A stretch of DNA of 63,826 nucleotides from a virus: positions 1 to 63,826 of IMG/VR virus record IMGVR_UViG_3300042526_000765, one strand, 5' to 3'. A program made the position numbers and the translations under genes. Every line of letters begins with the position of its first letter. Position 1 is the stretch's first letter. This document shows positions 55,147-61,558 of this stretch, piece after piece. Below the pieces are notes generated by a model, which saw only the letters and a program-made list of their open reading frames with translations, ran no database searches and had not been told where the DNA came from.

Positions 55147-55155
55147 TGCTATACT
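55147..55155 (+). promoter_or_regulatory. Extended -10 early promoter
   Basis: TG-C-TATACT (55147-55155) 20 bases before an AAGGAG site. The same TGCTAWAMTAA pattern recurs at 58046 and 59151. Confidence 0.6.
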
Positions 55156-55177: not shown

Positions 55178-55369
55178 ATGAAAAAATTATCTAATGTAAA
55201 TGGAAAAGCAACTAAACTTAACAAACCTTTAACTGCCGGTACTATTAATTTCATCGTACAAAATGCTGGAAAAATGAAAGCAAAGAATATTGCAGCTATT
55301 ATTCACCGTCCCTTAAAAACCGTTCAAGGGGTAGCGTTACGCCTTGGCATTTCTCTAAGAGTGTTCTAA
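55178..55369 (+). CDS. Small helix-turn-helix-like basic protein
   Basis: 63 residues. Basic N-terminus, then INFIVQNAGKMKAKNIAAII and RPLKTVQGVALRLGI, two helices spaced like an HTH. Its own promoter and AAGGAG site argue for separate control. Possibly a transcription regulator. Confidence 0.6.
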   Translation: MKKLSNVNGKATKLNKPLTAGTINFIVQNAGKMKAKNIAAIIHRPLKTVQGVALRLGISLRVF

Positions 55370-55370: not shown

Positions 55371-55400
55371 TGTCTTTTTAATAGACGCACTCCCTCCTTA

Positions 55401-55463
55401 GAGGTGTCACATACCCCCTAAAAGTTATAGATTTTAGGAAGTTGTGAGGTGGCGGCTCGCCAT
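55401..55463 (+). ncRNA. Structured RNA element, copy A
   Basis: Conserved block GGTGTCACATACC, a perfect 7-bp hairpin (CCTAAAA/TTTTAGG), conserved block AAGTTGTGAG, then TGGCG-GCT-CGCCA. The two blocks are identical in copy B while the hairpin between them differs in sequence but keeps pairing. It precedes the 50-aa membrane protein gene with no visible ribosome site. Confidence 0.65.
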
Positions 55464-55472
55464 TTAAAAATT

Positions 55473-55625
55473 ATGATACAAAAAAAATTAGAATTAACAG
55501 TAATAGGATATTTGTTCACGTTATTAAATATTTTAATGACAGTTAGAGGATTTCCTATTGTTGGAATAGCTTTTGGATTTACCGCCTGTATTTTTTTTAT
55601 AAAAGCCCTGAGAATAAAGGAATAG
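55473..55625 (+). CDS. Small two-span membrane protein, 50 aa
   Basis: LTVIGYLFTLLNILM and PIVGIAFGFTACIFFI are the two hydrophobic segments, ending in basic ALRIKE. No ribosome site is visible before ATG; the leader is the structured element. Its expression may depend on that element. Confidence 0.6.
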   Translation: MIQKKLELTVIGYLFTLLNILMTVRGFPIVGIAFGFTACIFFIKALRIKE

Positions 55626-55626
55626 T

Positions 55627-55809
55627 GTGGAAATAATTCAAACAATTGCGTTACTATGTCAATTACATACAAGTTCTGATACTACATCTATGATAAAATT
55701 TGTAGAAGAAAAACAATTAAAGTGTCAGCAATATTATACAAAATGTTTAGATGGTGGATTTCTTGGAGACTACAAGAATTTATCAAAATGTATTTCTCAG
55801 AAAAAATAA
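55627..55809 (+). CDS. Small Cys-containing, probably exported protein
   Basis: 60 residues with GTG start one base after the previous stop. A short hydrophobic start (IIQTIALLCQL) and four Cys in total suggest disulphide-stabilised export. Confidence 0.5.
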   Translation: MEIIQTIALLCQLHTSSDTTSMIKFVEEKQLKCQQYYTKCLDGGFLGDYKNLSKCISQKK

Positions 55810-55943
55810 TAAAATTTATAAAAGAAGATTTGAATAGAATGTCCACTTACGAAAGATGGCGTTTGGTTTTTCAAATTATACAAATTATAATAACTTTAGG
55901 AGTTCCATTTATAGCAGTATGGTTAAACAAAAATTGGCACTAA
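55788..55943 (+). CDS. Small single-span membrane protein
   Basis: 51 residues from MYFSEK; other starts at 55743 and 55839 are possible as no ribosome site is convincing. RWRLVFQIIQIIITLGVPFIAVW is a membrane helix. Confidence 0.5.
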   Translation: MYFSEKIIKFIKEDLNRMSTYERWRLVFQIIQIIITLGVPFIAVWLNKNWH

Positions 55944-56092
55944 ATTTTATTCACGGATTAATAATTGGAGTAGCCTTAACTATGGCTATTATGTCGGTAG
56001 TTATTGATAAAATGTTTATAAGCAAAGATATTTTTAAATTAAAAAAAATATATGTAAATGGAAGAATTTTTAAACTCTGTGAGGATAGATAA
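55919..56092 (+). CDS. Small single-span membrane protein, 57 aa
   Basis: Starts MVKQKLALNFIHG; hydrophobic LIIGVALTMAIMSVVI, then basic tail. Overlaps genes on both sides, part of a run of tiny membrane genes. Confidence 0.5.
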   Translation: MVKQKLALNFIHGLIIGVALTMAIMSVVIDKMFISKDIFKLKKIYVNGRIFKLCEDR

Positions 56093-56256
56093 TGTATTTA
56101 TTATTCTTAATTATACTTAATTCTTCAGGAAGTAACATATCTACAAATGTTTCTAAATTTAACTCAGAATCTAATTGTTTACAGGCAATTGCTAAAATTT
56201 TAGAAATGGAAAATAAAAATAGAATTAAAATTCAAGCAAGGTGCGTGAGACAATGA
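56092..56256 (+). CDS. Small exported protein, 54 aa
   Basis: MYLLFLIILNSSG looks like a signal sequence; the mature part has a Cys pair (NCLQAIAKI and QARC). Overlaps the next ATG. Confidence 0.55.
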   Translation: MYLLFLIILNSSGSNISTNVSKFNSESNCLQAIAKILEMENKNRIKIQARCVRQ

Positions 56257-56516
56257 GCTATAATATAGACGGAAAAGTTGTAAATCAGTACGCCACTGTT
56301 AAAGTAGATAATACAGTAAGATGTGAAAAATGTAGCAAAGTTTTTTCAGCTCCACTTACTACAACAATGTTAGCACCTCCAAGAGGGTATATTATAAAAC
56401 ATTATATACACTTACCATATTACATATACGAAACCAAAAGTGGTATAGCTGTAGTATATTGTTCTGATTACTGTAGAAAAAAACATAATCATAGATTTAC
56501 AAAAAGAACAAAATGA
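56253..56516 (+). CDS. Four-Cys zinc-binding protein
   Basis: 87 residues from MSYNIDGK. CEKCSKVF and YCSDYC with His-rich C-terminus form a zinc ribbon or treble-clef-like site. An RBS-like AAGGTG precedes it. Confidence 0.6.
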   Translation: MSYNIDGKVVNQYATVKVDNTVRCEKCSKVFSAPLTTTMLAPPRGYIIKHYIHLPYYIYETKSGIAVVYCSDYCRKKHNHRFTKRTK

Positions 56517-57154
56517 AAATTACTTGTATTTCTGATACTCATCAACTACATGATCAACTAATAATACCCCCTTGTGATATGATTATTCACGCAGGAGATT
56601 TTACTAACAGAGGTAAGCAAGATGAAGTTAGAAATTTTATAGAATGGTATGCTATTCAAGAAGCTAACCATAAAATTTTAGTTTGCGGAAACCATGAAGT
56701 TGAGATAAGTAAAAATATACAAAAACTACAAAAATTGTGCGTGGACAATAATATAATTTTGTTAAATAATGAACACATAGAAATAAATGGTTTGAAAATA
56801 TTTGGAAGCCCCTATTCTAAAGAATTTGGAAGATGGGCATACGGCTTACCAGATTTAGAATTAGATAAAATATGGGGTTTAATAGATTATGATACAGATA
56901 TATTAGTTACTCATGGACCTGCATTTTTTAGACAGGATAAATGTCCCGGTGGAAATGTGGGGAGTGCTACCCTAACTAATCACATTGAAAATAGATTAAC
57001 TAAATTAAAATTACATGTTTGTGGGCACATTCATGAAAGTAGAGGTTGTTCTTTAGAATCTACCAATTATGAAAATTACATAACAGTAAATGCTTCGGTT
57101 TGTGGAATTCCGTACTCTGATTTTATAATTAACCCCATAACGATTGAACTATGA
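56513..57154 (+). CDS. Calcineurin-like metallophosphoesterase
   Basis: 213 residues with all five family blocks: ISDTH, HAGDF, VCGNHE, THGPAFF and GHIHESR. No signal peptide. Phage members include nucleotide or RNA phosphodiesterases; the substrate cannot be read. Overlaps neighbours by ATGA. Confidence 0.9.
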   Translation: MKITCISDTHQLHDQLIIPPCDMIIHAGDFTNRGKQDEVRNFIEWYAIQEANHKILVCGNHEVEISKNIQKLQKLCVDNNIILLNNEHIEINGLKIFGSPYSKEFGRWAYGLPDLELDKIWGLIDYDTDILVTHGPAFFRQDKCPGGNVGSATLTNHIENRLTKLKLHVCGHIHESRGCSLESTNYENYITVNASVCGIPYSDFIINPITIEL

Positions 57155-57414
57155 AATCTGATAATAAGAAAAAAATAGCTAAAGAATTAAATGTAAATCT
57201 TACAAATGAAGAAATTTTTGATCTTGATTTGGAATATAAAAGAGTAGAGTTAGAATTACTTTTTTCTGATCAGTGCTATGAAAATCAATTAAAAGCTTTT
57301 AGTTTAAACATGCCATATAAATGTACATGTGTGGATACTTATAGTATGTCAAAAAATGAAATTGAGAAACATCTATCTATTTTTGAAATTAAAAAGAAAA
57401 GGGAAATGCAATGA
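57151..57414 (+). CDS. Hypothetical acidic/basic helical protein, 87 aa
   Basis: Lys-rich start, acidic middle, and CTCVDTY with two Cys. Coupled to both neighbours by ATGA overlaps. Confidence 0.55.
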   Translation: MKSDNKKKIAKELNVNLTNEEIFDLDLEYKRVELELLFSDQCYENQLKAFSLNMPYKCTCVDTYSMSKNEIEKHLSIFEIKKKREMQ

Positions 57415-57644
57415 TTTGGTGTGTGGAAGTCATTAATTTAAAAAAAAATAAAACAAAATATTTATTAGATTATGAAATTAAAGACGCATCTGCAACTTTA
57501 AATGGAATACGCCTTATTGGTCATCATGAAAGAACTTCAGCGGGATCTGTAGATTTTTTTATTAAAAATAAAGGAATATCCTTAGATCCTGATTTAGATA
57601 TAAGAGATGGAGATCTACTTGTAATAAAGGGATTTAGGGATTGA
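57411..57644 (+). CDS. Hypothetical protein, 77 aa
   Basis: Beta-rich pattern; LDIRDGDLLVIKGF near the end resembles a small beta-grasp or SH3-like motif. Not recognised. Confidence 0.55.
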   Translation: MIWCVEVINLKKNKTKYLLDYEIKDASATLNGIRLIGHHERTSAGSVDFFIKNKGISLDPDLDIRDGDLLVIKGFRD

Positions 57645-58045
57645 ATAGCGAACTTAAAAAATATATAAAAGATATTTGTGAGATATATGGTTGTACTTTA
57701 AAAATATCTAATAAAAATACTGGTGGCTTATACTGGAATGGAGCTATAACATTAAGTAATGATATGTCCGATAAAGAAACTATAACAGTGTTTTGCCATG
57801 AACTTGCCCATTACAAAAATGATATAGAAAATAAATATCCGATATTTCATAAAACAAATCACTACAAGGCTATTGAAAGAATGGGGAGAAAAAATTTTGC
57901 AAGATACGCCTTAAATGCTGAATTATATACAGAAAAAATAGGAAAAGAACTTTGTAAGATATGGTTTCCTGCTCATGTCTTTAAATACGGTTATAAAAAC
58001 AATCAATATTGGCTTGGATTTTTTTATGGGTATTATTTTAATTAA
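57641..58045 (+). CDS. ImmA/IrrE-like zinc metallopeptidase
   Basis: 134 residues with a TTG start. CHELAHYKND (HExxH) and a later ALNAELYTE segment match the ImmA/IrrE-like fold. Such peptidases cleave repressors to switch on mobile elements; here the target could be a phage or host regulator. Cytoplasmic. Confidence 0.72.
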   Translation: MNSELKKYIKDICEIYGCTLKISNKNTGGLYWNGAITLSNDMSDKETITVFCHELAHYKNDIENKYPIFHKTNHYKAIERMGRKNFARYALNAELYTEKIGKELCKIWFPAHVFKYGYKNNQYWLGFFYGYYFN

Positions 58046-58054
58046 TGCTATAAT
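58046..58054 (+). promoter_or_regulatory. Extended -10 promoter before RNA element copy B
   Basis: TG-C-TATAAT (58046-58054). Transcription from about 58061 would begin just at the structured element. Confidence 0.65.
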
Positions 58055-58063
58055 AAATTATCG

Positions 58064-58145
58064 CAGTGCTACCAAGGTGTCACATACCAGATAGCGATTA
58101 TATCGATTACAAAGTTGTGAGAGTGGCGGGCTCCGCTTTTTTTGA
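58064..58145 (+). ncRNA. Structured RNA element, copy B (riboswitch/attenuator candidate)
   Basis: GGTGTCACATACC (58077-58089) can fold as a 5-bp hairpin with loop CAC; a variable imperfect hairpin follows, then AAGTTGTGAG and GCGG-GCT-CCGC ending in seven T, i.e. a terminator, before GAGG and ATG at 58156. Aptamer-like conserved blocks plus a terminator next to an RBS are the layout of a transcription-attenuation leader. Confidence 0.65.
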
Positions 58146-58155
58146 GGACCATACT

Positions 58156-58347
58156 ATGAAGATTATATATGAATTTGATCCTTATGAAGATAAAGAAGAA
58201 CTTGAGCTTTTTCAAAACGCAAGCGTAAATGCTAAAAAATTAGATGAAATTACTAGATATGTTAGAAAGTTAAATAAGTATGATGAAAGAGAAGTGATTT
58301 CTATTGAAGAACTAGTTACAAATATGAATGAAATATTAAATGACTAA
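58156..58347 (+). CDS. Acidic protein controlled by RNA element B, 63 aa
   Basis: Start at MKIIYEFDPYEDKEELELF, decided by GAGG nine bases upstream. A very acidic, helical protein ending MNEILND. Not recognised. Could be a nucleic-acid mimic or inhibitor. Confidence 0.65.
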   Translation: MKIIYEFDPYEDKEELELFQNASVNAKKLDEITRYVRKLNKYDEREVISIEELVTNMNEILND

Positions 58348-59681: not shown

Positions 59682-59813
59682 ATGTTAAACGAACTTAAGA
59701 ATAAATTTCACGATCAAGAAAGAAGACTTGAAGTATTGGTCGAAAGTAATAAAACAATAGAGACAGAAATAAAGCTTGTAATAAACGAAATTCAGGAGAT
59801 ATTAAATGATTAA
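59682..59813 (+). pseudogene. Decaying copy of the 61189 gene
   Basis: The intact relative starts ATGGACGAAATTGAAAAACTT after AAGGAGG; here that ATG reads ATAAAAG and the ribosome site is AAGGGG. The first remaining ATG yields 43 residues. Coding sequence downstream is well kept, suggesting recent loss. Confidence 0.6.
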
Positions 59814-60027
59814 TTGGAATAAATGGGATCCAGCTTGTGTTGATGATTTAAGCGATGAATTAACAAATCAGACATATGTAATGAGCCCAAATTATAATCA
59901 TGAAAAACTTGCATCAAAAGTTGAGCTTGCGTTGTTTATTATGAAAGACAACGAATGGCATAATGATGAAGGCTCTATTCAATACCAGGTCTATAAAATA
60001 TTAGAGAAAGCAATTGAAGAACTATAA
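59806..60027 (+). CDS. Paralogue of the 61340 gene, 73 aa
   Basis: MINWNKWDPACVDDLSDEL; near-identical in its second half to the protein at 61340 (ALFIMKDNEWHNDEGSI). Function unknown. Confidence 0.65.
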   Translation: MINWNKWDPACVDDLSDELTNQTYVMSPNYNHEKLASKVELALFIMKDNEWHNDEGSIQYQVYKILEKAIEEL

Positions 60028-61188: not shown

Positions 61189-61347
61189 ATGGACGAAATT
61201 GAAAAACTTGAATTAATGTTAAACGAACTAAAGAATAAATTTCACGATCAAGAAAGAAGACTTGAAGTATTGGTCGAAAGTAATAAAACAATCGAGACAG
61301 AAACAAAGCTAATAATTAAAGAACTACAGGAGTTATTAAATGATTAA
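61189..61347 (+). CDS. Coiled-coil small protein, 52 aa (intact copy)
   Basis: MDEIEKLELMLNELKNKF with AAGGAGG upstream; helical throughout. The 59682 copy lacks this start. Overlaps the next ATG. Confidence 0.65.
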   Translation: MDEIEKLELMLNELKNKFHDQERRLEVLVESNKTIETETKLIIKELQELLND

Positions 61348-61558
61348 TTGGAATAGATGGGATCCAGCTTGTATTGATAATTCTGAAGATTTACCAAATC
61401 AGTCATATGTAATGAGTCCAAATTATAATTATGAAAAACTTGTGTCAAAAGTAAAGCTTGCATTATTTATTATGAAAGACAATGAATGGCACAATGACGA
61501 GGGTTCTATAGAACACCAAGTCTATAAAGTATTAGAGAAAGCCGTTCAAGAATTATAA
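61340..61558 (+). CDS. Paralogue of the 59806 gene, 72 aa
   Basis: MINWNRWDPACIDNSEDL; conserved second half as in 59806. Substitutions are mostly conservative, which supports a real protein product for both. Confidence 0.65.
   Translation: MINWNRWDPACIDNSEDLPNQSYVMSPNYNYEKLVSKVKLALFIMKDNEWHNDEGSIEHQVYKVLEKAVQEL

What the first reader, a model, noticed from the sequence alone, without database searches (positions are those of the whole stretch)
55401..58145. Two copies of a structured RNA element leading tiny genes
Blocks GGTGTCACATACC and AAGTTGTGAG are identical in the copies at 55401 and 58077. Between them lie hairpins with different bases but kept pairing, and each ends in a GC stem (TGGCG-GCT-CGCCA; GCGG-GCT-CCGC plus T7). 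Loop CAC can pair with GUG of the second block, making a pseudoknot possible. Each follows a promoter-like TG-N-TATAAT-type sequence and precedes one small gene (50-aa membrane; 63-aa acidic). It looks like a phage riboswitch, attenuator or RNA-thermometer class that I do not match to a known family.
Basis: partly seen in the sequence, partly recalled or inferred. Interest (0 to 1): 0.85.

Follow-up and report, generated by a model that had tools for sequence, protein, structure and literature searches.

The report
New pseudoknot RNA element in phages
Between some genes of this phage and about twenty related phage contigs sits a small folded RNA element, shown to be real by matching base changes on both sides of its stems and absent from the RNA catalogue; it probably controls how the next gene is read, but that job is not yet shown.

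Summary
Both copies (w1 55400-55466, w2 58073-58142) belong to an RNA family that I found in about 20 further uncultured phage contigs: 24 distinct full-length members. No Rfam 15 family matches. The core is a hairpin (P1) with invariant loop GUCACAU, an optional hairpin (P2), box (A)GUUGUGAG whose UGUGA pairs with UCACA of the loop (H-type pseudoknot), and hairpin P3 capped by GCU or GCUA. All nine P1/P3 pairs show two-sided changes (0 of 500 shuffles reach this); the five pseudoknot pairs never vary. Genomes carry 1-3 copies, always on one strand; 14 of 24 follow a small helix-turn-helix gene.

Function is inferred. I favour a translational cis-element: six copies lack a Shine-Dalgarno site after P3, and exactly these have the AUG 6-12 nt beyond P3 (14-29 nt otherwise), as if P3 bridges a GAG(G)U site to the AUG, like T4 genes 25/38, with the pseudoknot overlapping that site. 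Copies in non-coding transcripts (G018, G019, G020, G001) do not fit and keep RNA processing/ribozyme and put-like antitermination open. The 'riboswitch/attenuator/thermometer' reading is partly supported: new class yes, ligand unshown, terminator-like only in some copies.

The parts
55403..55415 (+). copy w1: P1 hairpin GGU-GUCACAU-ACC, invariant 7-nt loop
   Evidence: P1 pairs show two-sided changes
55417..55438 (+). copy w1: optional P2 hairpin CCUAAAA-GUUAUAGA-UUUUAGG
   Evidence: z -3.1; the relative G003a keeps it with other bases (CCUAGA/UCUGGG)
55439..55448 (+). copy w1: box AAGUUGUGAG; UGUGA 55443-55447 pairs with loop UCACA 55407-55411 (pseudoknot)
   Evidence: pairs invariant in 24 of 24 members
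55450..55462 (+). copy w1: P3 hairpin UGGCG-GCU-CGCCA
   Evidence: P3 pairs covary
55178..55369 (+). 63-aa D5-like helix-turn-helix gene, upstream neighbour of w1 and of its counterpart in 13 other members
   Evidence: phrog_323, E 6e-8
55147..55155 (+). promoter-like TGCTATACT before the HTH gene
   Evidence: consensus match only
55473..55625 (+). 50-aa membrane-protein gene after w1; no Shine-Dalgarno site between P3 and AUG
58046..58054 (+). promoter-like TGCTATAAT before copy w2
   Evidence: 8 of 8 matches, 24 nt before the loop; consensus match only
58076..58088 (+). copy w2: P1 hairpin GGU-GUCACAU-ACC
58095..58105 (+). copy w2: weak P2 hairpin CGAU-UAU-AUCG
   Evidence: z -0.8
58112..58121 (+). 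copy w2: box AAGUUGUGAG; UGUGA 58116-58120 pairs with UCACA 58080-58084 (pseudoknot)
58125..58137 (+). copy w2: P3 hairpin GGCGG-GCU-CCGCU running into a U-run to 58143; looks like a short intrinsic terminator
58156..58347 (+). 63-aa acidic protein gene after w2, with its own GAGG site at 58144-58147

Best explanation
A new family of cis-acting phage RNA elements of about 45-105 nt, placed between cistrons. Shown: P1, P3 and (where present) P2 are real RNA helices; the P1 loop UCACA and UGUGA of the 3' box are invariant and complementary, so that an H-type pseudoknot forms or the bases are bound by something. Inferred: the element regulates translation initiation of what follows. GAG(G)U at the foot of P3 is a Shine-Dalgarno-like site that overlaps the pseudoknot; P3 loops out the spacer so that the site comes within reach of the AUG (a split ribosome-binding site). 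Closed, the pseudoknot hides the site; a ribosome finishing the upstream gene (stop codon often only about 10 nt before the loop), or a phage or host protein that recognises the invariant loop, box and GCU cap, would set whether it opens. In copies with their own Shine-Dalgarno site the pseudoknot would act as a nearby operator, as in T4 gene 32.
For: Covariation in all four P1 and all five P3 pairs; whole structure 95.5% paired cells against 33-59% when slid, 0/500 shuffles on four of five measures. Members found without using the box sequences (by HTH protein search or by model) still carry GUCACAU and GUUGUGAG; leaving four loop bases free found no other loop. Clean split of 19 coding copies: 6 without a Shine-Dalgarno site have AUG 6-12 nt after P3, 13 with one (1 of them weak) 14-29 nt. 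Homologous genes use both arrangements (w2 and G003b; w1, G003a, G008, G011, G020a). Precedents in phage T4: gene 38 (22 nt reduced to 5) and gene 25 (27 to 11) split sites, gene 32 pseudoknot operator (PMC3014915). Stop codon 9-15 nt before the loop in 11 of 14 HTH copies.
Against: Four copies are not directly before an ORF: G018 (long non-coding stretch), G019 and G020b (tRNA-like sequence), G001b (non-coding RNA). Thirteen coding copies have their own Shine-Dalgarno site outside the structure. GAGGU weakens to GAGAGU or GAGUGU in some members, one of them (G007) without another site. No partner protein identified; the HTH protein was not found in five records that carry the element, two of them 80 kb or more. 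The pseudoknot pairs never vary, so covariation does not prove them. The split-site reading was made after seeing the data.
Confidence: 0.36

Rival explanations
1. A processing site or new self-cleaving ribozyme that separates the upstream mRNA or non-coding RNA from the downstream mRNA or tRNA-like RNA.
For: It would work in every context seen: after HTH genes, inside non-coding transcripts, before tRNA-like sequences. Compact pseudoknotted core with about 19 near-invariant bases and an optional peripheral helix P2, as in small ribozymes.
Against: No match to any ribozyme family in Rfam; no cleavage site can be named; no catalysis was tested.
Confidence: 0.22
2. A put- or nut-like site: the nascent RNA binds RNA polymerase (alone or with a protein) and makes it resistant to termination or pausing over the operon downstream.
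For: Placement resembles HK022 putL/putR: some copies lie 24-49 nt after a strong promoter-like sequence (w2, G003b, G018), others about 200-235 nt after the start codon of a small HTH gene, 8 of 14 with a promoter-like sequence of its own (putR lies ~270 nt from its start site, PMC9378689). 1-3 copies per genome, one strand. Would explain non-coding contexts.
Against: Promoter association over all copies is not significant (p 0.23); five HTH copies have no promoter directly upstream; no strong intrinsic terminator on the + strand of the window to read through.
Confidence: 0.2
3. A transcription attenuator or riboswitch in which P3 plus the U-run is the terminator and the pseudoknot is the sensor.
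For: w2, G009, G011, G019 and others have P3 followed directly by 5-7 U; w2 scores as terminator-like.
Against: About half of the members have no U-run, several P3 stems are short or A-U rich (AGUU-GCU-AACU), and the GCU loop is conserved, which terminators do not need. No common theme among next genes.
Confidence: 0.12
4. DNA operator (inverted repeat GTCACA...TTGTGA) or chance repeat rather than an RNA.
For: The two boxes are inverted repeats as DNA; an HTH gene is often adjacent.
Against: Box spacing varies from about 6 to over 60 bases, while P1 and P3 bases change in pairs; always one orientation within a genome.
Confidence: 0.02

Closest known systems
T4 gene 32 mRNA pseudoknot operator
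   Same: H-type pseudoknot in a phage mRNA upstream of a start codon, followed by U/A-rich sequence
   Different: No sequence relation shown; here 1-3 copies per genome before unrelated genes, none recognised as an ssDNA-binding protein; extra P3 with GCU cap; trans factor unknown
T4 gene 25 and gene 38 split ribosome-binding sites
   Same: A hairpin between a Shine-Dalgarno-like site and AUG shortens the effective spacing to 5-11 nt
   Different: Here the hairpin is part of a conserved pseudoknot family and only 6 of 19 coding copies would depend on it
HK022 put RNA
   Same: Cis RNA of similar size, two per genome, close to an early promoter or a few hundred nt after it
   Different: put is two stem-loops with a triplex and no such pseudoknot; no evidence here for antitermination
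Small H-type pseudoknot riboswitches (preQ1, SAM-II type; from memory)
   Same: Compact pseudoknot overlapping a Shine-Dalgarno-like site
   Different: No Rfam match; no metabolic theme downstream
Type III toxin-antitoxin RNAs (from memory)
   Same: Short pseudoknot RNA units
   Different: Single units, no recognisable toxin gene next to them

Membership tests
Any Rfam 15 family | covariance-model score at gathering threshold, or a marginal match | tested here: not met
   no match over the element
Structured RNA (general) | covarying helices in homologues | tested here: met
   9 of 14 pairs with two-sided changes, 0/500 shuffles
H-type pseudoknot | loop of a hairpin pairs with a downstream strand | tested here: inconclusive
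   complementary in 24/24 but invariant; needs probing
HK022 put RNA | two stem-loops that bind the RNA polymerase beta' zinc-binding domain | not testable with these tools
   anatomy differs; binding not testable
Intrinsic terminator/attenuator | GC stem followed by U-run in all members | tested here: not met
   U-run absent in about half of the members
T4 gene 32-type operator | pseudoknot ahead of the ssDNA-binding protein gene that it autoregulates | tested here: not met
   genes after w1 and w2 match no Pfam or PHROG family; several different next genes
T4 gene 25/38-type split RBS | Shine-Dalgarno-like site and AUG brought to 5-11 nt by a hairpin | tested here: inconclusive
   spacing fits in 6 copies without another site; use by ribosomes not tested
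Riboswitch | binds a small molecule | not testable with these tools
   no ligand assay; no common gene function
Self-cleaving ribozyme | site-specific self-cleavage | not testable with these tools
   no Rfam ribozyme match; needs in vitro transcription

The most novel reading that the evidence does not exclude
The element is a new functional RNA class, either a self-cleaving ribozyme or a protein-independent regulator of RNA polymerase or ribosomes, shared by different phages and also used inside their large non-coding RNAs.
Probability: 0.3. Interest if true: 0.85.

Novelty: new variant of a known kind. Interest (0 to 1): 0.62.

Why it matters
A covariation-supported RNA family without an Rfam entry, in 1-3 copies per phage genome and small enough (44 nt in G012b) for simple bench tests, is a good entry point to post-transcriptional control in uncultured phages. 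[quoted passage not shown] this could be a multi-gene counterpart, or else a new ribozyme or antitermination RNA.

Tried and rejected
A first 3'-end pattern was written with a wrong spacing and found nothing. Frames or gap limits were wrong. BLAST of the element in named phages and plasmids gave only chance-level hits. Two scans of 84,980 bacterial and archaeal genomes gave none and one chance hit without P3. The Silvanigrella phage with the nearest terminase (28% identity) has no copy in the 32.8 kb searched. Promoter proximity as a general rule: not significant. HTH protein as obligatory partner: rejected. General terminator: rejected. DNA operator: rejected by variable spacing and covariation. 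The relaxed pattern gave mostly chance hits; of its new loci only L077, L079 and L081 carry the element. Folding single sequences is of little use because the pseudoknot cannot be predicted (z from 0.1 to -2.3).

Full report
What is there. Each is followed by a GC hairpin with loop GCT. The window is a 63,826-base virus record with a DNA polymerase A, a terminase and AAA proteins. Its host is unknown; the only terminase relative found among named phages is a Silvanigrella phage at 28% identity.

Finding the family. A gapped pattern found eight stretches in IMG/VR; relaxed patterns added more. A covariance model R1 from nine members found further copies in the same records, and a search with the upstream HTH protein brought in contigs whose element had not been asked for. 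A second model from 24 members gave final copy numbers: two in the window, two in G003 with the same layout 2.6 kb apart, three in G010, two each in G012, G020 and G001 (one of G001 weak), one in the others; within a genome all convincing copies lie on one strand. Some records are near-identical (G006/G007, G010/G012, G013/G014/G016), so there are 24 distinct full-length members and one cut off by a contig end (G017). The element was not found in named phages, plasmids or 84,980 prokaryote genomes.

Structure. On the alignment of 24 distinct members (A4), P1 (3-4 pairs), pseudoknot (5 pairs) and P3 (4-5 pairs) form standard pairs in 95.5% of cells, against 33-59% for slid controls. Nine of 14 pairs show changes on both sides (shuffles: mean 2.8, 0 of 500 reach it). 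Examples of P3: GCG-GCU-CGC, GCGG-GCU-CCGC, GCGA-GCUA-UCGC, AGUU-GCU-AACU, UGGCU-GCU-AGUCA, GUGACG-GCU-CGUCAC, AGUGC-GCU-GCACU. Examples of P1: GGU/ACC, CAGU/ACUG, CCGU/ACGG, CCAG/CUGG. The alignment was fitted to a model holding P1 and P3, which favours those helices, but the changes are plain in the raw sequences. The pseudoknot strands are invariant even in members that were not found through them, and a search leaving the loop bases free found no variants; this is constraint, not covariation. P2 is optional (2 nt between P1 and the box in G012b) but folds better than shuffles where present (mean z -1.6); w1 and G003a keep it with different bases.

Context. In 14 of 24 copies the upstream gene is a 63-73-aa D5-like HTH protein, with its stop codon 9-36 nt before the loop, mostly about 10. 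Downstream genes differ: a 50-aa membrane protein, a dUTPase-like protein (judged from its sequence, not searched), small unknown proteins. In G019 a tRNA-like sequence stands between the element and the same membrane gene; in G020b the element lies between a tRNA-Val and a tRNA-like sequence; in G018 it starts 49 nt after a TTGACA-TATAAT promoter-like sequence of a long non-coding stretch; in G001b, G002, G009, G012a and G020b it is part of, or next to, a long non-coding stretch with blocks conserved at 96-98%. The HTH protein was not found in five records that hold the element.

Mechanism. Nineteen copies have a near start codon. Six lack any Shine-Dalgarno match between P3 and AUG; their AUG lies 6-12 nt beyond P3. 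The other thirteen have one (G013 weak) and a distance of 14-29 nt. In the six, GAG(G)U just before P3 is the only candidate site, and P3 would bridge it, as known for T4 genes 25 and 38 (PMC3014915). The same box is half in the pseudoknot. This makes a translational switch or coupling element the best single reading, with the step 'helices form' shown, 'pseudoknot forms' likely, 'controls translation' inferred, and the trigger unknown. It does not explain the non-coding copies. Those fit processing/self-cleavage or put-like action on RNA polymerase, for which the placement near promoters in some copies is suggestive but not general. I therefore give the leading explanation only 0.36.

Verdict. 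Observation confirmed; interpretation partly supported: a new structured RNA family, not shown to be a riboswitch, attenuator or thermometer.

Noticed in passing
L131 1180-1506, L046, L050, L054, L067: Large non-coding phage RNA regions with blocks conserved at 96-98% over 52-59 nt (AGCGGGGCGGGAGTTTGTTAGTTTGTAACCGCAGCGAATAACCTTAAACT) in otherwise different phages; the order of this block and the element differs between phages; no Rfam match other than a tRNA.
   Followed up: partly
L129 (minus strand, after the element), L131 1590-1770: tRNA-like sequences with paired acceptor ends and T-arm but long inserts, not called by ARAGORN (GGGAATG...CATTCCC; GGGGATG...CATCCCC).
   Followed up: no
window 59682-60027 and 61189-61558: A duplicated pair of small genes (MLNELKNKFHDQERRLEVLVESNKTIETE... 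and MINWN.WDPAC...).
   Followed up: no
window 58050-58078; L063; L114: Copies without an HTH gene share a box CGC(A/G)G(C/T)G..(A/T)ACC shortly before P1 (w2 CGCAGTGCTACC, G003b CGCAGCGTTACC, G018 CGCGGTGATAACC, conserved block above CGCAGCGAATAACC).
   Followed up: no
L124, L125: Two contigs encode the HTH protein without the element; the next gene starts at once.
   Followed up: partly
window + strand: No strong intrinsic terminator on the + strand of the window, three on the - strand.
   Followed up: partly
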